A DNA stretch of 64,000 bases from Actinospica robiniae DSM 44927. GTDB taxonomy: Bacteria; Actinomycetota; Actinomycetes; Streptomycetales; Catenulisporaceae. Of the stretch, positions 5,696-15,543 are shown piece by piece. Under the pieces are notes generated by a model. The model was not told the origin of the DNA, did not search any database, and saw nothing but the letters and a program-made list of their open reading frames with translations. How positions within the stretch are numbered: the first letter of the stretch is position 1; the number at the start of each line of letters is the position of its first letter. The translations under genes and the position numbers were made by a program. The stretch is taken from NCBI RefSeq assembly GCF_000504285.1, contig NZ_KI632511.1:6120154-6184153 (forward strand), given 5' to 3'.

Positions 5696-6805
5696 ATGAC
5701 CAGGAATGACGCGCATACCGAACCCGCCATCGAGTGCATCGGACAACAGACGATTCCGGGCCTCGAGCATCTGAACGCAGCACGCCACCGCGTACGTCCG
5801 GCCTCCGTGCTGTGCACCGCCCAATCGCCCTCGCGATCCCAGCGCGTCGGCCGCTACCTGCCCGAGACGATCGCCCATCCAGGCCGGATGCTCCCGGCCA
5901 TCGCCCGGCACATCATCGAGGCGTATACCGAGCCGCACGAGTTGGTGTTCGACCCGATGTGCGGGATCGGCACCACGTTGATCGAGGCGATGCACCTCGG
6001 GCGCAACGCGGTCGGCATCGAATACGAGAAGCAGTGGGTCGGCCTCGCCGAGCGCGGGATCCACCACGCTCGCAACCGAGGTGCCCACGGCGCCGGGTAC
6101 GTCTGGAACGCCGACGCTCGCCAGATCCCGGACGGGCTCCTTGAGGCCGTACGCGGCCGGGTCAGACTTCTGCTGACCTCACCTCCCTACGGCCCGACCT
6201 GCCACGGGCAGGTCAAAGTCCACGGCCGGGCCGGGCACACGGGGGCGATCGCCAAGACCGACGAGCGCTACTCGAGAGATCGGCGCAACCTCGCCCACCG
6301 TCCCGCACGCGAAATGCTCGCCGGGTTCACCGACGTGCTCGCCGCCGCACATCCGCTACTCAAGCCCGGCGGCATCGTCGCGGTCACCGCCAGACCCTGG
6401 CGTCGAAACGGACACCTCATCGACCTGCCGAGCGCCGTCCTGCGCGCCGGCCAAGCAGCAGGCTTCACCCCGCTCGAACGCTGCGTCGCGCTGCTCGGCC
6501 GGTGTGAAGAAGTCAATCCTGGCGCCCGCGACTCGGGCGGCTGCGGATGCATTCCCGTCACTGCCCATGAGCGCCTGATCGCACACGGCTCGTTCTTCCA
6601 ACTCGACGCCGCACGCCGCGCCAATGCCCGCGGTGTACCCCAGTCCCTCATCACTCACGAAGACATCCTGTGCATGGTCAAGGAGGCAAGTTCCAGAAGT
6701 TCACGTCAACTGAAGGGTTCTCAGGTCGAACTTCAGGATACTTCCGGGGCTGCGGCGGGGTCGAGTGCTGAGGTTCGCGGGGATGAACCGGGGAGGGACT
6801 CGTGA
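5696..6805 (+). CDS. DNA N4/N6 methyltransferase with an aberrant C-terminus
   Basis: A 369-residue DNA methylase that modifies exocyclic amino groups, probably cytosine N4 given TSPPY. Visible motifs: HPGRMLPAIARHIIEAYT (motif X-like), DPMCGIGTT (SAM-binding motif I, residues about 86-94), GRNAVGIEYE (motif II), TSPPYG (catalytic motif IV, residues about 161-166) and LLKPGGIVAV (late core strand). After about residue 330 the reading enters the end of the neighbouring recombinase cassette (from 6717), so the last 28 or so residues probably do not belong to the original protein. The orphan methylase, with no restriction gene seen, may protect the element on entry to a new host. Confidence 0.85.
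   Translation: MTRNDAHTEPAIECIGQQTIPGLEHLNAARHRVRPASVLCTAQSPSRSQRVGRYLPETIAHPGRMLPAIARHIIEAYTEPHELVFDPMCGIGTTLIEAMHLGRNAVGIEYEKQWVGLAERGIHHARNRGAHGAGYVWNADARQIPDGLLEAVRGRVRLLLTSPPYGPTCHGQVKVHGRAGHTGAIAKTDERYSRDRRNLAHRPAREMLAGFTDVLAAAHPLLKPGGIVAVTARPWRRNGHLIDLPSAVLRAGQAAGFTPLERCVALLGRCEEVNPGARDSGGCGCIPVTAHERLIAHGSFFQLDAARRANARGVPQSLITHEDILCMVKEASSRSSRQLKGSQVELQDTSGAAAGSSAEVRGDEPGRDS
6717..6733. repeat. Left terminal motif GTTCTCA...GAACTT of the recombinase cassette
   Basis: A 17-base imperfect dyad, GTTCTCAGGTCGAACTT, located exactly at the end of the large recombinase gene and inside the methylase frame. A related 21-base version in opposite orientation is at 9865-9885, beyond the first recombinase gene. 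They could be recombinase core sites. Confidence 0.35.
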
Positions 6806-8408
6806 TCGGATGCCAGCAGGAGTCGGGCGTTGGTCGCGTAGCGCACTGCGGTGCTCTCGGATCCGCCGAACACGGCGAGCAGGTGGGTGGGGTCGGCGCC
6901 GGAGGCGAGGGCTTCTTCCAGGCGCCGGTCTATCCGCAGTCGTTCGAGGTTCGTGTCGGTCGCGCGCAGGTCGATGACGTAGGTCTGGCTGACGGGCCCG
7001 AGCCCGAGCGCGCTTTGCTTGCTCACCAGCAGGTGCGGGTTGGCGGTGCCGGGGTGGCGTCGGTGGCGGTGCTCGAGGTAGTCGAGCAGCACCTGGTGGG
7101 TCAGCGCGTCGAGGGGGCGCTCGATGCCGCCGATCGTGATGCGCCGGGCGGGAAGGTCGAGGTCGTTAAGGCGCAGCGCCCGGGTCTGTCCGGGGCGTGC
7201 GCCGTGGATCGCGGCGAGTGCGAGAAAGAGGCGGGCCTGTGGGCTCGTGCAGGCGGCGATCGCCTGGTCGAGTGTGGCTTGGTCCAGGGGTTGCCAGATG
7301 GGGCGGTTCTCGCTCGGGCCGCGCAGGGCGCGGGTGGGGTTCGCGAAGATGCTGCGGGTGGCCTTCGCCCAGCGAAACAGCGCGCGGAGGCTGGAAAGGA
7401 GCATGCTGCGCTGCTGCCCGGTGGCCCGGTTGTAGACGGCGGTGACATCGCGGGGGTCACCTCGCGCAGGTGGTGGTAGCGGGCGGACCATGCGGTCAGG
7501 GCGGGCAGGATCGCGGTGAGGTAGGTGTAGGCGGTGTGGGGGTGGCGTGCGGGGCTGCGCGGTGTGCCGTAGCGCAGGGTGCGTGCCCAGGCGGTGATGT
7601 CCGCGCCGATCGCGGGGGCGAGGGTGGCGGCCTTGGCCGCGAGCCACATGTCGAAGGTGGTGGGCAGATCGTCGTCGAGTACGTCCATCTGCTCGAGCAG
7701 TTCGAGCACGTGCTCGAGGCCGATGCAGTGCGCTCGTGCAACGGGGCGTGCGGCGCTGGCGCGTACCGTCTCCCCGGCCTGGTGGGTGGCGAGCAGCTCG
7801 GTCAGGGTGCGCTGCATCGCGCGCTGGGAGGCCGGGTTCCATCCCCGGGCTTGGGCGGTGGTGTGGGCCAGGTGCAGGGCCCAGGCGAGGAACGGGTTCT
7901 CCGGTGCCGGGGCGCTGCGCAGGTCGAGGCGCTGGGCGCGGTAGTTGCGCCGGTCGAGCTCGAAGAGTGCGGTCTGGATCCAGCGGGCGGCGGGGCGCGC
8001 GGCCACGGGTGGCGGCGGTTTGCGCGGTCGGCCTTTCTCGCCTCGGCGGCGCGGCGCGGTGCGCGGGCGGGCTGTGCGTTTGGTCATTCCGGCGAGGAAG
8101 AGCTGTTGGTGGCGCACGAGGGGAAGGTGCGGGGCGATCATGACTTTGGCGCGCGCGTCCAGGTGCTGCGCGCCGTCGCGTTCGTGCCGGGCCTGGCACC
8201 AGCACAAGCGGCAGTAGCCGTTCTTGAGCGGCTGCTCGCGCCGGCAGGCACCGCAGCGGCCGATGGGGTGTCGTCGGGCGGGTGCGGTGAAGTTGTAGCA
8301 GCCCAGGCATACCCCGGTGCTGTGGATCAGCCCCCAGGCGTAGCAGGAGACGCAGCTGTCCAAGGTGCCCGAGGGCGGGCCCGGGGTCCCGGGAAGGCCG
8401 CGTGGCAT
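6733..8408 (-). pseudogene. Large tyrosine-recombinase-like protein, frameshifted and with a degenerate active site
   Basis: Restoring one base gives about 558 residues. Reading from ATG 8406-8408 (5 bases after the HTH gene), the N-terminus is cysteine-rich with about four CxxC-type pairs (CVSCYAW, CLGCYNF, CGACRRE, CRLCWCQ), a probable zinc ribbon. Core-binding helices follow up to YHHLREVT. At a run of five C (plus-strand G 7452-7456) the frame breaks. The next frame continues sensibly with DVTAVYNRATGQQRSMLL through to PEVS. A sixth C would restore EVTPRDVTAVYN. The catalytic part has ARPGQTRALRL (first Arg region) and GGSESTAVRYATNA in the tyrosine-box position, but no HxxR box. It is probably a non-catalytic partner, and the frameshift may be real, programmed or a sequencing error. 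Confidence 0.7.
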
Positions 8409-8413
8409 CCGGG

Positions 8414-8758
8414 TCAGGCGATCGGTGGGGGCAGCGAGCGCCCGCCGGTGCGGCGCGGGACGATCGCGAGCGGGGTCGTGCCAGGGCCGCCCATCCCGGC
8501 GGCTGGTGCGAGGTTCGCGGCCTCGGGCCCGGGGGCGACCTTCTCGGGCTCGGGGATGAGCAGTTCGCCGATCTCGCAGCCGAGTACGGCGCAGATCACG
8601 TCGAGTTCCTCGAGTTTGAGGGAGGCGGGCTGGCCGGACCACAGGCCCGACATCTTCCCGGCCGACAGGACCAGGCCGCGCTCGGCGAGGGCGCGCTGGA
8701 GGACCGAGGCCTTCCAGATCTCGCGTTTGGCCGCGGCCATCCGCAGGTTCCACTTCAT
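8414..8758 (-). CDS. Small XRE/Cro-type helix-turn-helix protein
   Basis: A 114-residue protein. Its ATG (8756-8758) follows immediately after the TAG of the upstream recombinase, so translation is coupled. The N-terminal 70 residues form a compact HTH domain (VLQRALAERGLVLSAGKMSG, then LKLEELDVICAVLGCEIGEL), of the type common in Cro/CI-like repressors. The C-terminal 40 residues are Pro/Gly-rich and probably disordered. It lies between two recombinase genes and may regulate the cassette or act as a recombination directionality factor. Function is inferred. Confidence 0.75.
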   Translation of the reverse strand: MKWNLRMAAAKREIWKASVLQRALAERGLVLSAGKMSGLWSGQPASLKLEELDVICAVLGCEIGELLIPEPEKVAPGPEAANLAPAAGMGGPGTTPLAIVPRRTGGRSLPPPIA

Positions 8759-9832
8759 CTACGCCAGCCCCTTGAGTCTCTCGGCCGCGCGTGACTGGCC
8801 GGCCAGCCACGCGTCCTCGATCCGGGTGCGGTGCACGTGAACGTACCGCATGGTCGTGGCCACCCACGAATGCCCGAGAAGTTCCTGTATGGATATCAGA
8901 TCCATGTTGTTGAGGTAGAGCTGGGAGGCGCAGTAGTGCCGCAGCACGTGCGGGGTCAGCCGGCCCGCCCACCCCGGCAGGTACGACGCCGCGGCCTCGG
9001 CCAGGCCCGCGCGCAGCGTCTCGTAGCCCACCCGGCGCGCACTGCCGTCGATATCCCGGCGCTCGGCGGCGAACAACGGCGCACCGGGCCGGGCGTGGTC
9101 ACGGTCCAACTGGCCCCACACGTCCTGGATGTACCAGCGCAGCAGCTCGGCGGCACCGCCGAGCAGCGGGACCATCCGCTCGCGCGGACCGGAGCCGTAG
9201 GAGCCCTTGCCGTAGCGCACGTGCAGCTTGCCGAACCGGCCCAGCTCCCAGCGCACATCGGCGAGATCGAGCCGACAAGTCTCGTTCGCGCGCAGCCCGG
9301 TATCGGCCATCAGCCTCGCCGCGGCATAGGTACGGGCCGCCGGGGCGAACTTGCGGGCCGAGCCGAGCGCCTGGCCCCACCCGGTGAACAACCCCGTCAT
9401 CTCCGCCTCGCTCGGCGGGATGCGCAACCGGGCGTCCTTGCGCCCGCGCGGCCGGTTGAGCTCATCGAGCGGACAGACGGCGACGATGCCGGTCAGCGCG
9501 TGCAACTCGGCCTGATGGCGTAGCTCGAGGAACTCGAAGTACACCGAGAGCGCGGCGGCACGAGCCAGTCGCGTGCCCCCCGCCGCACCGCGCAGCACCT
9601 TCCCGAAGTACACGTCGGCATCCGCCGGCGCCATCTCCCACAACGGCCGGCCGAACCACTCACGCATCAGATCCAGGTGACTGACATCGCCACGGATCGT
9701 CGAGTCGCTCAGGCCCGCCGACGCCCGCGCGAGCACGAACCCGGCCATCAGGTCGACCTCGAACTCCGCCACGGCTTCCGCGGTCGCCACCGGCCGAACG
9801 TCGCGCAGGTCGCGCACGAGCGCAAGCGCCAA
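8759..9832 (-). CDS. Tyrosine-type site-specific recombinase
   Basis: A 357-residue recombinase. The start is a TTG at 9830-9832 with GGGAG a few bases upstream; a GTG slightly downstream is possible. Domains: N-terminal SAM-like core-binding region (about 20-120) and C-terminal catalytic domain (about 150-345). The active-site set is complete: Arg in MADTGLRANETCRLDL, HVLRHYCASQLYL (HxxR), GHSW and the nucleophile Tyr in TTMRYVHVH. The enzyme would cut and rejoin DNA through a 3'-phosphotyrosine. It is the only member of the three-gene cassette with a full active site. Its substrates may be the GTTC/GAAC dyads at the cassette ends. Confidence 0.88.
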   Translation of the reverse strand: MALALVRDLRDVRPVATAEAVAEFEVDLMAGFVLARASAGLSDSTIRGDVSHLDLMREWFGRPLWEMAPADADVYFGKVLRGAAGGTRLARAAALSVYFEFLELRHQAELHALTGIVAVCPLDELNRPRGRKDARLRIPPSEAEMTGLFTGWGQALGSARKFAPAARTYAAARLMADTGLRANETCRLDLADVRWELGRFGKLHVRYGKGSYGSGPRERMVPLLGGAAELLRWYIQDVWGQLDRDHARPGAPLFAAERRDIDGSARRVGYETLRAGLAEAAASYLPGWAGRLTPHVLRHYCASQLYLNNMDLISIQELLGHSWVATTMRYVHVHRTRIEDAWLAGQSRAAERLKGLA

Positions 9833-9864
9833 CTCCGGCTCCCAACCTTCACGCCGAGCACGGA

Positions 9865-9885
9865 AAGTTCATGAAACATGAGAAC
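9865..9885. repeat. Right terminal dyad of the recombinase cassette
   Basis: A near-palindrome of 21 bases, AAGTTCATG-AAA-CATGAGAAC, just upstream of the TTG start of the first recombinase. Read on the minus strand it begins GTTCTCA and ends GAACTT, as does the motif at 6717-6733. It could instead be a promoter operator for the cassette. Confidence 0.35.
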
Positions 9886-9990
9886 TGTGCATCAGTCCCG
9901 AGATTCTGTCAATGCTCTGCAAAGGGAAGGCCCGACCCCCGAAGCCCAGGCCAGCGGCACCAATCCGCACCACACCCAGGAGGAACACCA

Positions 9991-10275
9991 GTGTTGTCGG
10001 ACTCTAACGCAATGAACCACAACACCAGGACCCCCGCCACCGTTCCGGGCCCGCTGGTGGCCGACGCCGGCAGCCTGCCCCCCACCCTCGACATCCTCAC
10101 CGCCGCCAAATGGCTCGGGATCGGCCGCACCACCGCCTACCGCCTGGCCGAGCGCGACGAGTTCCCGACCCCCGTCCTGCGCGTCGGTCGGTGCTACCGC
10201 GTCCCGACCGCCCCGTTGATCGCGCTGCTCGGCATCCGACCTGAGGCAGGGCCCGAAGCCGATCTGGCTGGATGA
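9991..10275 (+). CDS. Excisionase-like helix-turn-helix DNA-binding protein
   Basis: A 94-residue protein. GTG 9991 was chosen because a perfect AGGAGG (9978-9983) lies 7 bases upstream; an internal ATG at 10012 is weaker. The core (residues about 28-85) has LDILTAAKWLGIGRTTAYRL, then RVGRCYRVP. This is the MerR-like winged HTH typical of small excisionases next to integrases of actinobacterial plasmids and integrative elements. It lies 200 bases upstream of the integrase on the same strand. The likely role is bending attachment-site DNA to favour excision. Confidence 0.8.
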   Translation: MLSDSNAMNHNTRTPATVPGPLVADAGSLPPTLDILTAAKWLGIGRTTAYRLAERDEFPTPVLRVGRCYRVPTAPLIALLGIRPEAGPEADLAG

Positions 10276-10477
10276 CCGAGGCGCCGCGTTGGGCCCGTGC
10301 GGCCACGGGCCAAACGCGGGCGCTGAAGAACCTTGACGCCGGGGGTTGATGGCCGGGCGGGGCGGGGCGTGGATGTCGAGCACCGCGGGCGACCAAAGGA
10401 TTCGCAGCCCGCGACCAACGGACACCCTGCCCGGCCCCCTCGCGGGTCGCGGGCAGCACAGACAGGGAGAAACACTG

Positions 10478-12049
10478 ATGGCGGCGAAGCTGAGCGGCAC
10501 TGTGTTCAAGCGCTGCACCTGTACCGGCCTGGTCGAGCAGGACGACGGCACCCGGGTGCGCAAGATGCTCGGCACAGCGTGCCCGAAACTGACCTACAAG
10601 GACGGCCGTTACTCTCGCGATCACGGATCCTGGCGCATCCAGCTCGAGGTTCCGTTCAGTGACCGCGGACCGCGCGCCCACATCCGTGCCGGAGCCGCCA
10701 CCGAGGCCGAGGCGAAAAGCCTGCTCACCACCGTCGCCGAGCTCCTGCGCATCGCGGACGGAAGCGAAACCCCCGACATGCACCGCCGCGAGATCACCGC
10801 GCTGATCAAGAAACGCCTTGCGGCGGGGCAGCGGCTGCCGGATGAGGACGAAGTCCGCAAGCGCCTTCGCATGGGCCAGGACTTGGACGTGCCGATCACC
10901 GTGGAGCAGTACCTGATCGACTGGCTCGCCGGACGCACCGACCTGGCCGGCGGCACGCTGATGGCCTATGAGATGCATATTCGTGTCCACCTCATCCCCC
11001 ACCTCGGACACATCCGGCTTGACCGGCTGAAGGTCAGTCACATCCAGGCGATGCGCGCGGGGATCGAGGAGCGCAACCGACAGATCGAGATCGACAACCA
11101 GCGCCGCGCCGACTACCGCGCCCTCTACGCCGAAGCCAAGGCGTCGGGAGACAAGGCAGCTGCCCGTGCGTTGAAGACGAAACTGGCCGAGCTCGGACGG
11201 CCCCAGCGCACCACCGGCCCGATGACCATCAAGCGCATCCGCGCCACGCTCTCCTCGGCGCTGGCCGACGCGATCCTCCAGCAGTTGATCACCGTCAACC
11301 CGGCCAAGCTCATCCGCCTGCCCGGCAACCGGCACGCGACCAACCTGATCTGGACCGCGCCGCGTGTGGAGGAGTGGCGCAAGACCGGGATGAAGCCGTC
11401 GCGCGTGATGATCTGGACGGTCGAGCAGACCATCGCGTTCCTCCAGGCCTGCCGCGAGCATCGATTCGCGGTGGTCTACCACCTGATGGCGATCACCGGG
11501 ATGCGCCGCGGCGAGGCCGCCGGCCTGCACTGGAGGGATGTGGACCTCGACGGCGGAGAACTCGCGGTGACCTGCCAGCTCGCCCAGATCGGGTGGCGAA
11601 CCGAAATTACCTATCCGAAGACCGGGCACTCGGTGCGCACCATCGCCCTCGAACCCGCCCTCGTCGACCTGTTACGGGCTCACAAGGCCGAGCAGGAGCG
11701 CCGCCGGATCAACGCGAGCGACGGCTGGACCGACACGGGGCTGGTCTTCACCCGCGATGACGGCACCGCCATCCACCCCGCCCAGCTCACGGCAGAGTTC
11801 TACAGGTTGGTCGCCCTTTACGAGCTGCCCCCGGTGCGTCTGCACGACCTTCGCCACGGTACGGCGACCCACGCGTTGACCGCCGGCATCGACGTGAAGC
11901 TCGTCCAGGACCTGCTCGGGCACGCGACCTCGACCTTCACCCGCGACGTCTACACCGGTGTCGCTGACCAGGCCCGTCGTGAAGCCGCCAAGACGCTCAC
12001 GTCAATCTTCACGCGTGCACCCAGCAGTCAAGAGCGCCCGACGTGCTGA
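10478..12049 (+). CDS. int: Tyrosine integrase of the conjugative element
   Basis: A 523-residue integrase. ATG 10478 follows GGGAG at a proper distance. Domains: N-terminal Cys-containing segment and arm-type DNA-binding region (1-70), a long helical insertion (80-270) with the core-binding domain (VPITVEQYLIDWLAGRT), and the catalytic domain (about 310-505). The catalytic residues are all present: Arg in AITGMRRGEAAGLHW, HDLRHGTATHAL (HxxR), LLGHATSTFTRDVYTGV (second His and nucleophile Tyr). With the excisionase upstream this is the expected int-xis unit, here in xis-int order. The attachment site cannot be read directly; the nearest tRNA gene is tRNA-Lys at 14869. Confidence 0.92.
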   Translation: MAAKLSGTVFKRCTCTGLVEQDDGTRVRKMLGTACPKLTYKDGRYSRDHGSWRIQLEVPFSDRGPRAHIRAGAATEAEAKSLLTTVAELLRIADGSETPDMHRREITALIKKRLAAGQRLPDEDEVRKRLRMGQDLDVPITVEQYLIDWLAGRTDLAGGTLMAYEMHIRVHLIPHLGHIRLDRLKVSHIQAMRAGIEERNRQIEIDNQRRADYRALYAEAKASGDKAAARALKTKLAELGRPQRTTGPMTIKRIRATLSSALADAILQQLITVNPAKLIRLPGNRHATNLIWTAPRVEEWRKTGMKPSRVMIWTVEQTIAFLQACREHRFAVVYHLMAITGMRRGEAAGLHWRDVDLDGGELAVTCQLAQIGWRTEITYPKTGHSVRTIALEPALVDLLRAHKAEQERRRINASDGWTDTGLVFTRDDGTAIHPAQLTAEFYRLVALYELPPVRLHDLRHGTATHALTAGIDVKLVQDLLGHATSTFTRDVYTGVADQARREAAKTLTSIFTRAPSSQERPTC

Positions 12050-12162
12050 TCGGAGTTCACGGACGCGACACGCGGGAGCAATCGACCCGGACATGGAACG
12101 CAGCTCACTCCCGCATCGAGAACCAGCCAGCCTTTCACCGGCGCCCTGGTGATGAGATGACC

Positions 12163-12603
12163 TCAGTGTGGGCCGAGGAGCCACCACAACCCTGCGGCTA
12201 TGAAGAAGACGGCCAGGACGGTCAGGCCGCCTGCCTTCGCCAGGACCTCTCTCGGAGGCCGAATGGTCACAAGTCGGTCGGGCTTTTTGGGGCTGTACCG
12301 TACGACGATCTCCTTCTTCTTGTCGTGGGAGTATCCCAGCCGTTCATCGAACCGCACTTCACGACGCTTACCTCCCGCTTCGGCCCAGTACGAGACGACG
12401 GAGATCCATCGGACCGTGTCGCCGTACCGATCGCGACGACCCTCCCTGACAGCTTCGACCCGACCTGTCGCCGTCGCCCCGCGCAGCGCGACGCGGAGAA
12501 TTCTTATCTCGTGAACGGCCGGGCCGAGGATGATCGCGCCCAGGATGATGCCCACGACCGAACCGATATTGGCTGCATCGCCTTCGAAATGCCCAAACAT
12601 CAC
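12163..12603 (-). CDS. DUF3592-like membrane protein
   Basis: A 146-residue protein with GGGAGG 8 bases upstream of GTG 12603 (or ATG 12600). It has an N-terminal membrane segment (about 12-35), an extracytoplasmic beta-rich part (ATATGRVEAVREGRR, then WISVVSYWAEAGGKRREVRF and EIVVRYSPKKPDRL), and a C-terminal membrane segment (about 120-142). This two-helix layout with a beta sandwich is typical of DUF3592 proteins. It is the last gene of a three-gene unit with two WXG-type proteins, where an immunity gene would be expected. The immunity idea is inference. Confidence 0.65.
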   Translation of the reverse strand: MMFGHFEGDAANIGSVVGIILGAIILGPAVHEIRILRVALRGATATGRVEAVREGRRDRYGDTVRWISVVSYWAEAGGKRREVRFDERLGYSHDKKKEIVVRYSPKKPDRLVTIRPPREVLAKAGGLTVLAVFFIAAGLWWLLGPH

Positions 12604-12658
12604 TGCTGAGACCTCCCTGACTCTAGAGAGTGAGAGTGGATTCGGTGGTCATCAGTCC

Positions 12659-13714
12659 TTACTCACCGGACTCAGCAGCCTGGCTGAGAGCTGCTTCCAG
12701 TGCGTCCTCGACTGTCTTGGCGGTGGTCTCCGTTTCGTCGAGGATGCCCTTCGCGTTCAACGCCGTGATGCCGCCACCAGCGATGAACGCCTTGCCCGCT
12801 GGCGTGTCGAGTAGGTCTGCGATCTTGGCGCTCGACATGATTGAGTTCGCGAGCTGCGGGCTGAAGTCTAGAGCCTGCGCGTAGGCTTCGTTCATTGCTC
12901 CCCGCGGGAGAAGAGCATCGACGGCCGCCGGAGCGGCTTCCGCGAGGACACCGAGAAGTCCACCTGCTTCGATATCCTTGAGGACGCCTGCGGCGTCGTC
13001 GGCGGCGGACGGTTGTGGCTCGCCGTTAGCCGCGTTCAGCGTGGTTGCGAAGGCCTCGCCGAACATCGCGGCGAATCCACCACGGATCGACCCCGCCACG
13101 AAGCCTTCGGTGGCTGACCCGGCCACCGAGGCGGCGACCTCACCTGTGAAGCCGATGGCGTCGGACAGCTCGATGGATACGTTTGCGGCCTGGTCTGCAA
13201 GCGTGGCCATCAGATCTGTGACCCACCCGATGACGACCTCTGCTGCATTCTCGGCGATCACGGCGGAAAAGCCGAAGCTGAAGATCAGCGCTATGCCGGC
13301 CATGGCGATGGCGCCAGCGAGCTCTTCGGCCTTGTGTTCGATCTCGGTCTTTACCTCGGACACTTGATCAGCGAACTCGTCGCAGGCTTTGGCCAGTGCC
13401 CGGCAGGCCTGGCTGGTGAGGGGGATGGAGCCGGTCTTGCCGCCGTATTGCTGCCACTTCGCGGCGAAGGCGTCGATGGCTGTGCCGGAGTTGTTAGTTG
13501 TGATGGAGGCCACGAGATTGTTGCAATCGGTACTGATGTCGTCCAGTTCGTCGGCCAGGGCGGTCCAGGCGTCGGCGGCCTGGCGGGCGGCGTCCTGGTT
13601 GCATGCGGGCCACGGGACATGGAACTCGCGGAGGATGCCCCCGACGCCGGAGCCTCCGCTGATAGGAGTGGTGTCGGGTGTGGTTATCCCCCAGCCGCCT
13701 GGGCCGTCGGGCAT
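12659..13714 (-). CDS. WXG/LXG-type secreted protein, possible polymorphic-toxin carrier without a recognisable toxin end
   Basis: A 351-residue protein. ATG 13712-13714 has GGAGG 6 bases upstream. After a Gly/Pro N-terminus, residues 30-130 form a helical WXG100-like domain (ARQAADAWTALADELDDIS, then DAFAAKWQQYGG). A hydrophobic segment follows (about 133-160, AGIALIFSFGFSAV), as in many type VII-secreted polymorphic proteins. The C-terminal 190 residues are Ala-rich and helical and match no nuclease, ADP-ribosyltransferase or deaminase motif that I know. The WXG100-like gene lies just upstream and a membrane protein downstream. It is probably exported by an ESX/type VII system encoded elsewhere. 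Confidence 0.65.
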   Translation of the reverse strand: MPDGPGGWGITTPDTTPISGGSGVGGILREFHVPWPACNQDAARQAADAWTALADELDDISTDCNNLVASITTNNSGTAIDAFAAKWQQYGGKTGSIPLTSQACRALAKACDEFADQVSEVKTEIEHKAEELAGAIAMAGIALIFSFGFSAVIAENAAEVVIGWVTDLMATLADQAANVSIELSDAIGFTGEVAASVAGSATEGFVAGSIRGGFAAMFGEAFATTLNAANGEPQPSAADDAAGVLKDIEAGGLLGVLAEAAPAAVDALLPRGAMNEAYAQALDFSPQLANSIMSSAKIADLLDTPAGKAFIAGGGITALNAKGILDETETTAKTVEDALEAALSQAAESGE

Positions 13715-13753
13715 GATCGCCTCCGTATCTGTGCCGTGAGCGAAGGGCGTGTA

Positions 13754-14083
13754 TTAGAGGGCGTAGGTTCCGCCGTGGCGGAAGCCCTCGGTGATGTCGG
13801 CTTCGGTCTGGCCGTAGCTGGCGGCCATCTTCGTCAGCCCTTGCGACACGCCTTCGAGGTCTTCGGCGATCTTGGTGAGCATGAGCAGGACTTCAGCGGA
13901 GATCTTCTGGTAGCTCGCGGCGAACTGGGTGCCAGGTTTGTCGTCGCCCCAGAAAGATCCGAGGCTCTGAAGCGTTGCGACGGCCGAGTTCATGGAGTCG
14001 ACGAGCACTTGTCCGCTTTCGCCGATCTGCGGCGCGATCGCGAGGAGGTCGTCCACTTCGATCTTGAAGCCGGCCCCGCTCAC
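13754..14083 (-). CDS. WXG100-like small protein (ESX/type VII secretion family)
   Basis: A 109-residue helical protein starting with GTG 14083. It has the WXG100 layout: helix, turn with SFWGDDKPGTQFAASYQ (Trp-x-Gly near the middle) and a second helix (LTKIAEDLEGVSQGLTKM). The end carries YGQTEADITEG, resembling the C-terminal Yxx[DE]-type export signal of type VII substrates (Y-x-x-x-E here, so a loose fit). It is the first gene of the three-gene unit and probably pairs with the larger WXG protein. No ESX core component is in the window. Confidence 0.7.
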   Translation of the reverse strand: MSGAGFKIEVDDLLAIAPQIGESGQVLVDSMNSAVATLQSLGSFWGDDKPGTQFAASYQKISAEVLLMLTKIAEDLEGVSQGLTKMAASYGQTEADITEGFRHGGTYAL

Positions 14084-14868
14084 TGGTGGCTACCGCAGGT
14101 GCTGAGGGTAAGACATGTCATCGCAGGCTCTCCCCTTGCCTGTAGTCGCTTGCTCGCCCACAGTACCGTGCGTCTAGGTACGGATCAATGAATATGTGCA
14201 CTGATACAGCGATGAGGCGCAATTTCTGCGCCGAGCACTCTCGCCCATACCGCGCCGATAAACACATCACATGTGGTATCAGATTCCTATACGGCATCAG
14301 ATGCCACCTACGCACCTGAGCATCCCGTGCGCCTCGCCAGTCAGCAGCACCGAGCATGGGATGGAACAGCTTCCTACTCGCCATCGCAATGATCCACGCG
14401 AGCAGCCGAGGCTCAAGCAGGTCGACCGCGCCCGCGAACTTCGGACGCTTTGGCTCCACGGGATCCCGACGCCTGGCTTCAAGCCGCAGGCCGTGTGACA
14501 CCAACCGATCACAGTGGTGGACGCGACAGCCTCGACACATGACCTGCCCGTCGTGCGCCACTCGGAGTGATGCCAAGTGGAGCGAGACGCTTACCGACCC
14601 TCGGAGCTTCGGCCTCACGCTGATGAGCCACGGCGCTCAGTCGCCGGCCAGTCAGCCTTGGCCAGGCATCCTGCCTATCGAACGTAAGAGTCCCATGGTC
14701 GACATTCGCTGCGTTGCGTTCCCGCAGGTCACCTGGAGTGAAAAATCAACCCCAGGACATGAGGCGCCGTCCCGTTCCCTCTCACTTCCCTCGCGCCTAC
14801 GCCACCGTATCCACATGGTTCTTACATCCGGTGGCGTCTTCTCCGCAGGTCAGCGGGTGTTGCTTGGG
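14084..14868. other. About 0.8 kb without a supportable gene
   Basis: Base composition is lower in GC than both sides (for example ATGAATATGTGCACTGATAC near 14188). Open frames across it have no plausible codon pattern, ribosome site or recognisable product. It separates the WXG unit from tRNA-Lys and may be decayed element DNA, possibly including the attachment junction. No repeat of the tRNA-Lys 3' end was found by eye. Confidence 0.5.
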
Positions 14869-14941
14869 TGGGCCGCGTGGGACTCGAACCCACAACCCAA
14901 GGATTAAAAGTCCTCTACTCTGCCAATTGAGCTAGCGGCCC
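14869..14941 (-). tRNA. tRNA-Lys (anticodon TTT)
   Basis: A cloverleaf can be drawn on the minus strand: acceptor GGGCCGC with GCGGCCC, D arm AGCTCAATTGGCAGAG, anticodon stem GAGGA/TCCTT with loop CTTTTAA (anticodon TTT), T arm GTGGG-TTCGAGT-CCCAC, discriminator A. CCA is not encoded. Its 3' end faces the accessory region to the left, the orientation expected if an element had integrated at the tRNA 3' end. Confidence 0.95.
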
Positions 14942-15164: not shown

Positions 15165-15237
15165 GGCCCCTTCGTCTAGCGGCCTAGGACACCGCCCTTT
15201 CAAGGCGGCGGCGCGGGTTCGAATCCCGTAGGGGCTA
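15165..15237 (+). tRNA. tRNA-Glu (anticodon TTC)
   Basis: Acceptor GGCCCCT pairs with AGGGGCT (one G-T pair). The anticodon loop CTTTCAA contains TTC between CGCC/GGCG stems, and the T arm is GCGGG-TTCGAAT-CCCGT. First of three plus-strand tRNA genes. Confidence 0.95.
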
Positions 15238-15329
15238 CGGCAGGGAGATTGACCAGCACGGCGACGTGCTACGATCTCCTGGTCGGAAACCGGCGGAAAC
15301 GCCGGGGCAAGGCAGAAGCAGTACCTCAA

Positions 15330-15403
15330 GGTCCTGTAGAGCAGTTGGAGTGCTCGCCACCCTGTCAAGGTGGAGGTCGCGGGTTCAAGTCCCGTCAGGA
15401 CCG
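15330..15403 (+). tRNA. tRNA-Asp (anticodon GTC)
   Basis: Acceptor GGTCCTG pairs with CAGGACC. The anticodon loop is CTGTCAA (anticodon GTC), the T arm GCGGG-TTCAAGT-CCCGT, the discriminator G. It lies 92 bases after tRNA-Glu. Confidence 0.95.
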
Positions 15404-15459
15404 CTCGGTACGGACCGGGCGTTGCGTTGACGTCAACGTAGCGCCCGTTTTCGTCCTGA

Positions 15460-15533
15460 GGCCAGGTAGCTCAGTTGGTACGAGCGTCCGCCTGAAAAGC
15501 GGAAGGTCGGCGGTTCGACCCCGCCCCTGGCCA
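15460..15533 (+). tRNA. tRNA-Phe (anticodon GAA)
   Basis: Acceptor GGCCAGG pairs with CCTGGCC. The anticodon loop is CTGAAAA (anticodon GAA), the T arm GGCGG-TTCGACC-CCGCC, the discriminator A. Last of the Glu-Asp-Phe cluster, followed by a terminator. Confidence 0.95.
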
Positions 15534-15543
15534 CAGCATACAG

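What the first reader, a model, noticed from the sequence alone, without database searches (positions are those of the whole stretch)
12163..14083. Type VII secretion-like trio carried between an ICE integrase and tRNA-Lys
A WXG100-like protein with a loose Yxx[DE]-like end, a larger WXG-domain protein with a membrane segment and an unassignable C-terminus, and a DUF3592 membrane protein in the immunity position form one unit. It looks like cargo of the ICE and a polymorphic-toxin delivery set whose toxin part is unknown or lost.
Basis: partly seen in the sequence, partly recalled or inferred. Interest (0 to 1): 0.6.

Follow-up and report, generated by a model that had tools for sequence, protein, structure and literature searches.

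The report
Mobile-element toxin cassette of unknown tip
A piece of DNA that can move between bacteria carries, right beside its landing site, a three-gene set that looks built to export a toxin from the bacterium and to protect its carrier; the delivery part belongs to a known kind, but the toxic end is short and unlike anything found.

Summary
The three genes are real and form one leftward unit: a 109-aa WXG100 protein, a 351-aa WXG100_2 (PF25547) protein and a 146-aa protein with two membrane segments (weakly DUF3592-like). They are cargo: a 48-bp exact repeat of the tRNA-Lys 3' half brackets a 90.7-kb conjugative element, and the trio sits between its integrase and one end. The host chromosome has its own type VII core genes.

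61 loci (60 Streptomyces) share the delivery part; 57 usable ones have 12 kinds of C-terminus, and 51 of 52 downstream genes fall with their C-terminus. Known pairs appear (RNase A/CdiI_2, NS_2 nuclease/SUKH, glutamine deamidase/Imm35). The layout, down to the place beside an attachment site, matches published mycobacterial prophage 'PEST' cassettes; here it rides on an ICE in another actinomycete.

What is odd: beyond the shared part only 86 predicted-helical residues remain (12 aligned relatives: 190-223), with no convincing relative found, and the immunity slot holds a membrane protein (1 of 52 relatives has any hydrophobic segment). Best guess: a short envelope-acting toxin with a membrane immunity protein; a lost toxin tip is a serious rival. 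A glycine-zipper idea failed its control. New variant of a known kind.

The parts
13754..14083 (-). 109-aa WXG100-type small partner (targeting factor), W45-G-D-D, export motif Y90xxxE94
   Evidence: PF06013 E 5e-5 (sub-threshold); partner-family match E 2e-10; alignment
12659..13714 (-). 351-aa polymorphic-toxin-like protein: WXG100_2 residues 33-160, hydrophobic stretch 129-162, Ala/Gly-rich linker to about 265, unique helical tip about 266-351
   Evidence: PF25547 8.7e-17; alignments; model (N-terminal hairpin high confidence, rest low); EsxA-like fold
12659..12919 (-). DNA coding the unique C-terminal tip (residues about 266-351 and stop) of the 351-aa protein
   Evidence: not alignable to relatives; two weak matches only in 396 phylum genomes for residues 181-351; coding-type GC by codon position
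12163..12603 (-). 146-aa DUF3592-like protein with two hydrophobic segments, in the immunity position
   Evidence: PF12158 E 0.0025, sub-threshold; hydropathy; model (low confidence)
10346..12049 (+). tyrosine integrase of the element
   Evidence: PF00589 4.3e-22, PF14659 1.9e-6
9871..10275 (+). excisionase-like HTH gene
   Evidence: PF12728 1.1e-5; TIGR01764 4e-4, both below cut-off
14863..14910 (.). attachment-site core at the trio's end of the element (48 bp, 3' half of tRNA-Lys); identical copy at genome 6044299-6044346
14867..14941 (-). intact tRNA-Lys(ttt), integration target

Best explanation
The trio is a type VII (ESX) polymorphic toxin-immunity cassette carried as cargo at the end of a 90.7-kb tRNA-Lys-integrated conjugative element, the ICE counterpart of the prophage 'PEST' cassettes of mycobacteria. 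The 109-aa protein pairs with the WXG100_2 hairpin of the 351-aa protein, and its YxxxE tail hands the pair to the host's own chromosomal ESX machine. The 351-aa protein carries a short helical tip in place of the enzymes of its relatives; I think it most likely acts on the envelope or membrane of a neighbouring cell, and the DUF3592-like membrane protein protects the carrier. Shown by sequence: gene order, homology, modularity in relatives, element borders, presence of host machine genes. Inferred: pairing, export, toxicity, membrane target, immunity.
For: WXG100_2 over cut-off. Partner gene homologous, found beside 40 of 61 relatives by a simple pattern. 12 C-terminal clusters in 57 loci; downstream cluster matches C-terminus in 51 of 52 against at most 27 in 2000 shuffles (loci are related strains, so not independent). 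Of 10 tips scanned, four are recognised toxins: RNAse_A_bac, Endonuclea_NS_2, Gln_amidase, EndoU; CdiI_2, SUKH-1 and Imm35 lie downstream of the first three. Host EccC 945/864 bits, EccB, EccE, mycosin-like protease. 48-bp att repeat and conjugation-type genes. Two hydrophobic segments in the immunity-slot protein against 1 of 52 relatives with any. Published parallel: three-gene WXG100-PT-Imm cassette, leftward and immediately adjacent to attR in McProf (PMC8191103, PMC10654092; passages).
Against: No toxin family in the last 86 residues; the tip is under half the length of relatives' (86 against 190-223); glycine-zipper motif not above chance (P 0.20) and shared by 43 of 48 relatives; DUF3592 hit sub-threshold and no paper of the library holds DUF3592 with immunity; the two other DUF3592 hits of the genome are not near any listed WXG100 hit. 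Tip model low confidence. Stretches around relatives of the element's integrase show no such trio.
Confidence: 0.55

Rival explanations
1. The toxin module has been lost. The 351-aa protein is a delivery chassis that ends in a leftover or filler tail, and the DUF3592-like gene is an unrelated or left-behind neighbour.
For: Tip is 86 aa where 12 aligned relatives have 190-223; no family match; residues 181-351 give only two weak hits in 396 phylum genomes (E 4e-4, about 21 bits); model mostly under pLDDT 50.
Against: Open frame with coding-type codon positions right to the stop (GC 0.65/0.49/0.73); no remnant of the compared toxins in six frames of 12050-14866 at E 0.01; downstream gene open, 55 bp on, with a good ribosome site.
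Confidence: 0.3
2. Not a weapon: an ESX-exported helper, channel or PPE-like protein that serves the element's own upkeep or transfer.
For: N-terminal fold also resembles PPE proteins (Z 8.5-9.6 over 145-156 residues, which for helical models may be only a common arrangement); no toxin domain; located within the element.
Against: Closest relatives by sequence are toxins with matching immunity genes; stretches around six relatives of the integrase hold no match to the trio at E 0.01, so transfer does not seem to need it generally.
Confidence: 0.12
3. The trio is chromosomal and merely lies beside an integration site.
For: A chromosomal WXG100-like/mycosin-like gene group lies about 0.5 kb beyond the other end of the element.
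Against: The trio lies inside the 48-bp repeats, the tRNA is intact on its far side, and its GC (0.636) is below element (0.673) and flanks (0.709-0.717). An empty site in a sister strain was not found.
Confidence: 0.03

Closest known systems
PEST cassettes (phage-encoded ESX-secreted toxins) of Mycobacterium abscessus/chelonae prophages (PMC10654092, PMC8191103; passages only)
   Same: Three genes WXG100 - polymorphic toxin - immunity; in McProf leftward and immediately adjacent to attR; N-terminal WXG100-like part, modular C-terminus; plasmids with two PESTs that lack an informed toxin domain did not transform efficiently without imm
   Different: Carrier is an ICE with conjugation-type genes, host is not a mycobacterium, immunity slot is a two-segment membrane protein; sequence relation to PEST1-3 not tested
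WXG100_2 polymorphic toxin sets of Streptomyces (61 loci, 60 titled Streptomyces)
   Same: Homologous N-terminus (36-43% identity over 127-149 residues for the eleven best), partner gene with WGDD and [YH]xxx[DE], immunity-type gene downstream
   Different: Tips of 190-223 aa in 12 aligned relatives with downstream proteins that lack membrane segments (51 of 52); the window's tip is 86 aa with a membrane protein
EsxF-EsxE-CpnT-IFT of M. tuberculosis (PMC8092274; passages; named only, no sequence fetched)
   Same: Small Esx partners, helical N-terminal export part, YxxxE motif needed for export, C-terminal toxin, adjacent immunity gene
   Different: One small partner, not two; the motif sits on the small partner here; no TNT family among Pfam hits
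Membrane-depolarising T7SSb toxins TelE, EsxX, TspA (PMC10434224, PMC12744356; passages)
   Same: Helical tip of no known enzyme family; membrane immunity protein for TspA
   Different: TelE and EsxX have an LXG rather than WXG100_2 N-terminus; no glycine zipper above chance here

Membership tests
Type VII polymorphic toxin / PEST-like cassette | Three co-directional genes: small WXG100, large WXG100-N protein, small downstream gene | tested here: met
Type VII polymorphic toxin / PEST-like cassette | Same N-terminus joined to different C-termini in relatives, each with its own downstream gene | tested here: met
   12 C-terminal clusters in 57 loci; 51 of 52 downstream genes match
Type VII polymorphic toxin / PEST-like cassette | YxxxD/E export motif on the pair | tested here: met
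   Y90xxxE94 in the small partner; [YH]xxx[DE] in 12 of 12 aligned
Type VII polymorphic toxin / PEST-like cassette | A C-terminal toxin domain | tested here: inconclusive
   no Pfam/NCBIfam toxin family in residues 266-351; the fold search hardly covers this part
Type VII polymorphic toxin / PEST-like cassette | Downstream protein neutralises the toxin | not testable with these tools
   needs expression
Type VII polymorphic toxin / PEST-like cassette | Secretion by an ESX system | not testable with these tools
   host core genes present; export not shown
PEST in the strict sense | Carried by a prophage | tested here: not met
   VirB4-, VirD4- and Replic_Relax-type genes; 10 large ORFs of the element scanned against PHROGs gave no head, tail or packaging family; the rest of the element's ORFs were not scanned
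PEST in the strict sense | N-terminal homology to PEST1, 2 or 3 | not tested
   those sequences were not compared; the 351-aa protein has no match in 50,697 phage records even at E 10
ICE | Direct repeats of a tRNA end, integrase, excisionase, conjugation ATPases | tested here: met
   48-bp repeat, 90,717 bp; PF00589, HTH_17 sub-threshold; P-loop_TraG 2.4e-14, TrwB_AAD_bind 1.7e-7, Replic_Relax 1e-36; a MOB relaxase was not identified and transfer not shown
LXG (T7SSb) toxin | PF04740 LXG domain | tested here: not met
   not among hits up to E 1
Glycine-zipper membrane toxin | GxxxGxxxG in the toxic tip above chance | tested here: not met
   one motif at 204-212, in the linker; P 0.20 in shuffles of residues 126-351; present in 43 of 48 relatives
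DUF3592 | PF12158 over its cut-off | tested here: not met
   18.9 against 25.3 bits

The most novel reading that the evidence does not exclude
A conjugative element borrows its host's type VII secretion machine to deploy a new, very short (about 86 residue) helical toxin that acts on the envelope of neighbours, with a DUF3592-type membrane protein as a new class of immunity factor; together with the BREX-type defence genes on the same element it would be an element armed against both rival cells and phages, and the pair may penalise cells that lose or lack it.
Probability: 0.25. Interest if true: 0.6.

Novelty: new variant of a known kind. Interest (0 to 1): 0.42.

Why it matters
Type VII toxin cassettes beside an attachment site were described for mycobacterial prophages (PMC10654092, passage: 1,063 unique prophages with them, all but one in the M. 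abscessus-chelonae complex). The same layout on an ICE in another actinomycete suggests that this slot suits different mobile elements and that they depend on a machine of the host. If the tip is toxic, it adds a toxin-immunity pair of a type not seen among the 12 clusters of relatives. The survey here (12 tip clusters, four recognised toxin families among 10 tips scanned) also shows how widely this delivery part is used in Streptomyces.

Tried and rejected
Glycine zipper as the toxin mechanism: GxxxGxxxG occurs once (204-212) but lies in the linker, is not above shuffles (P 0.20) and occurs in 43 of 48 relatives. Rejected.

Frameshift or decayed known toxin: six-frame pieces of 12050-14866 against the proteins, partners and downstream genes of 61 loci gave only the two expected matches at E 0.01. 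A weak similarity of residues 268-349 to the N-terminal part of relatives (E 0.07-0.3) was judged chance.

Known defence or phage family for the trio: PADLOC one hit at E 0.058, PHROGs none. No match of the 351-aa protein in plasmids or phages, none confirmed by the first genome-contig scan, none in solved structures by sequence up to E 1.

Trio as a regular part of this ICE type: six integrase relatives (42-64% identity) in four genomes of the family (5 of 215 genomes match at E 1e-120, own included). Stretches of 3.7-13 kb around them hold no match to the trio at E 0.01. One stretch has only about 2 kb downstream of the integrase and others stop at contig ends, so this is a partial test.

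DUF3592 as a general WXG neighbour: two other weak DUF3592 hits in the genome, not near the listed WXG100 hits.

Empty site in relatives: the left-flank WXG100-like gene has 42-43% relatives in two congeners, but no tRNA in the stretches fetched; one contig ends about 1 kb past the gene, so no empty site was shown.

Fold search: the N-terminal part fits EsxA-like hairpins (TMt 0.82 but E 0.29; Z 11.0, rmsd 1.4-2.0 over 81-90 residues). The tool warns that Z under about 13 is common for helical models; the sequence families carry this point, not Z. The tip was barely tested; absence of a match there says nothing.

A 166-aa ORF at 14118-14618 lies between the trio and the attachment site; weak codon-position signal, no Pfam family; not counted as part.

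Limits of the counts: the upstream-partner count (40 of 61) is a lower bound, as several ORFs were called too long or begin at a contig end. Four of 61 loci with ORFs under 300 aa were left out of the clustering; five of the remaining 57 had no downstream gene called. The one cluster with two downstream types is the ~1,430-aa group. Clusters are single-linkage at E 1e-5.

Paper searches that gave little: one search listed ten papers by its other term only; two searches gave none.

Full report
WHAT IS THERE. The window lies at 6,120,154-6,184,153 of a 9.9-Mb single-contig genome, in the same order as Streptomyces but in another family (family and genus labels; relatives of that large genus are named). 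Three ORFs run leftward: 14083-13754 (109 aa), 13714-12659 (351 aa), 12603-12163 (146 aa), with gaps of 39 and 55 bp. All have coding-type codon positions. Genes 2 and 3 have clear ribosome sites; gene 1 does not.

FAMILIES. The 351-aa protein has WXG100_2 (PF25547, 8.7e-17, 61.9 bits against 27) at 33-160. The 109-aa protein is a sub-threshold WXG100 hit (23.9 against 27.3), the 146-aa protein a sub-threshold DUF3592 hit (18.9 against 25.3). In the small protein the motif is Y90-x-x-x-E94; the same columns are [YH] and [DE] in 12 of 12 aligned partners. Neither protein has a literal W-x-G at the turn: it reads W45-G-D-D in the small one and W87-Q-Q-Y in the large one.

IT IS ELEMENT CARGO. 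Window 14863-14910, the 3' half of an intact tRNA-Lys, recurs exactly (48 bp) at genome 6,044,299-6,044,346, same orientation, 90,717 bp away, where no tRNA gene is found. About 80 bp next to the core are also similar: the BLAST match is 89% over about 124 bp. Between the copies lie VirB4-like (P-loop_TraG 2.4e-14), VirD4-like (TrwB_AAD_bind 1.7e-7, TraG-D_C 1.6e-6), Replic_Relax (1e-36), T2SSE and T2SSF genes, an excisionase-like HTH gene and the integrase. Ten large ORFs of the element gave no head, tail or packaging family in PHROGs. GC is 0.673 for the element, 0.636 for the trio and 0.709-0.717 outside. Between the trio and the end of the element there is only a doubtful 166-aa ORF without a family. 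The element also carries BREX-type defence genes: of 8 ORFs scanned, five hit PglW (684 bits, first 653 residues only), BrxC/PglY (1313), PglZ (760), BrxD (670) and BrxHI (1054).

THE HOST HAS THE MACHINE. EccC (TIGR03924 945 bits, TIGR03925 864 bits), EccB (PF05108), EccE (PF11203, TIGR03923) and a subtilase that hits the mycosin model below its cut-off (189.5 against 278.75 bits) lie together at about 5.108-5.117 Mb. EccD was not identified among the five ORFs scanned there.

RELATIVES. In 391 genomes of the order, 69 (own included) match the 351-aa protein at E 1e-10; in 394 of the class, 7 (own included) at E 1e-12. The 109-aa and 146-aa proteins match only themselves in 293 genomes at E 1e-10 and 1e-6, limits that are strict for such short proteins. 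With an alignment as query, 61 loci came from the named collection, 60 titled Streptomyces and one 'Actinobacteria bacterium OK074'. In 40 of 61 a WGDD-type small partner was found directly upstream by a simple pattern, a lower bound. 57 had an ORF of 300 aa or more. Their last 150 residues fall into 12 clusters; the 52 called downstream genes fall into 13, and 51 of 52 belong to the majority cluster of their C-terminus, against at most 27 in 2000 shuffles; without the four one-member clusters it is 47 of 48. Many loci are related strains, so these counts are not independent events. Of 10 tips scanned, four hit toxin families: RNAse_A_bac 6e-26, Endonuclea_NS_2 3.7e-15, Gln_amidase 1.7e-17, EndoU 7.5e-17. 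Of 10 downstream proteins, three hit immunity families, CdiI_2, SMI1_KNR4/SUKH and Imm35, behind the first three of these tips.

WHAT IS DIFFERENT HERE. The shared part ends near residue 265 of the window's protein. 86 residues remain, where the 12 aligned relatives have 190-223. Residues 181-351 gave only two weak matches in 396 genomes of the phylum (E 4e-4). The whole protein is acidic (47 D/E, 15 K/R). AlphaFold gives a confident WXG hairpin and only helices after it, mostly low confidence, the last helix 318-349 at about 62-79 over most of its length. The hairpin fits solved EsxA-type structures (TMt 0.82 but E 0.29; Z 11.0). The 146-aa protein has hydrophobic segments at both ends, modelled as helix-strands-helix at low confidence; only 1 of 52 relatives' downstream genes has any such segment.

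MECHANISM. By analogy with CpnT (PMC8092274, passages: export needs YxxxE and the small Esx pair; toxin C-terminus; immunity next door) the small protein should bind the WXG hairpin and present the motif to the host ESX machine. The target is inferred: no enzyme family, short helical tip, membrane protein in the immunity slot. A passage of PMC12744356, cut at its start, says that immunity to such toxins is in almost all cases by polytopic membrane proteins; TelE and EsxX in the cytoplasm are met by DUF5085 proteins, soluble in the case of EsxX. The specific glycine-zipper version failed. The lost-tip rival is alive because nothing positive identifies the tip as toxic. Against it: the frame is clean to the stop and no remnant is visible.

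CLOSEST KNOWN. Mycobacterial prophages carry three-gene PEST cassettes: WXG100, polymorphic toxin, immunity, with 15, 16 and 35 sequence types (PMC10654092, passages). In McProf the cassette is leftward and immediately adjacent to attR (PMC8191103, passages). For two PESTs without an informed toxin domain, plasmids lacking the immunity gene did not transform M. smegmatis efficiently, a direct precedent for an unrecognised tip being toxic. The window's set has the same order and the same place, but on an ICE outside mycobacteria. Searches for print on this combination: 'integrative and conjugative element' with type VII secretion, toxin, immunity and cargo gave three papers that by title concern other matters; 'WXG100' with 'integrative and conjugative' and 'actinomycete' gave none. 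The library holds open-licence papers only. One Streptomyces set of this family also lies near the end of an IMG/VR contig (L172), so other carriers exist in this family too. An LXG alarmone synthetase of Amycolatopsis with a targeting gene before it and a likely immunity gene after it (PMC12691689, passages) shows the same three-part plan in another actinomycete.

VERDICT. Observation confirmed; interpretation supported. A new variant of a known kind, with a tip and a putative immunity protein that are worth one expression experiment.

Noticed in passing
outside the window, genome 6076040-6094715 (L065, L066): The same element carries BREX-type phage-defence genes: PglW, BrxC/PglY (1313 bits), PglZ, BrxD and BrxHI hits in PADLOC.
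   Followed up: partly
outside the window, genome 6040408-6043786 (L064): About 0.5 kb past the far core copy lies a chromosomal leftward group: 162-aa ORF, 478-aa WXG100-like protein (sub-threshold) and a mycosin-like S8 protease (243 of 278.75 bits). The element thus landed between tRNA-Lys and another type VII-linked gene group; relatives of the 478-aa gene exist in two congeners (42-43%).
   Followed up: partly
window 14787-14862: About 80 bp beside the 48-bp core are also similar at both ends of the element, as if it carries flank captured from a related tRNA-Lys locus.
   Followed up: partly
window 8414-9832: A second tyrosine recombinase (PF00589 1e-23) with a HTH_26 gene directly behind it, inside the element; a much weaker recombinase-like ORF at 6733-8310.
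   Followed up: no
window 5696-12049; L162, L163: A DNA methylase gene (PF01555 1.2e-15) precedes excisionase and integrase here; similar-looking ORFs lie upstream of two related integrases in other genomes of the family, perhaps a conserved module (the latter by eye).
   Followed up: partly
L075, L089 2705-4384, L090 2587-4281: A relaxase (PF03432 1.3e-8 in L075) lies upstream of the toxin set in L075; homologues of it in 2 of 61 Streptomyces loci hint at mobile carriers there as well.
   Followed up: partly
L172 (IMGVR_UViG_2515154100_000002): A Streptomyces toxin set of this family (same DNA as L095/L076) lies near the end of a predicted viral contig.
   Followed up: partly
L112, L113, L115, L117, L124, L130, L140: Versions of about 1,420-1,510 aa join the same N-terminus to a long middle part that ends in a motif reminiscent of RHS proteins (recalled, not searched).
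   Followed up: no
window 15165-15534: Three further tRNA genes (Glu, Asp, Phe) follow tRNA-Lys on the other strand, outside the element.
   Followed up: no
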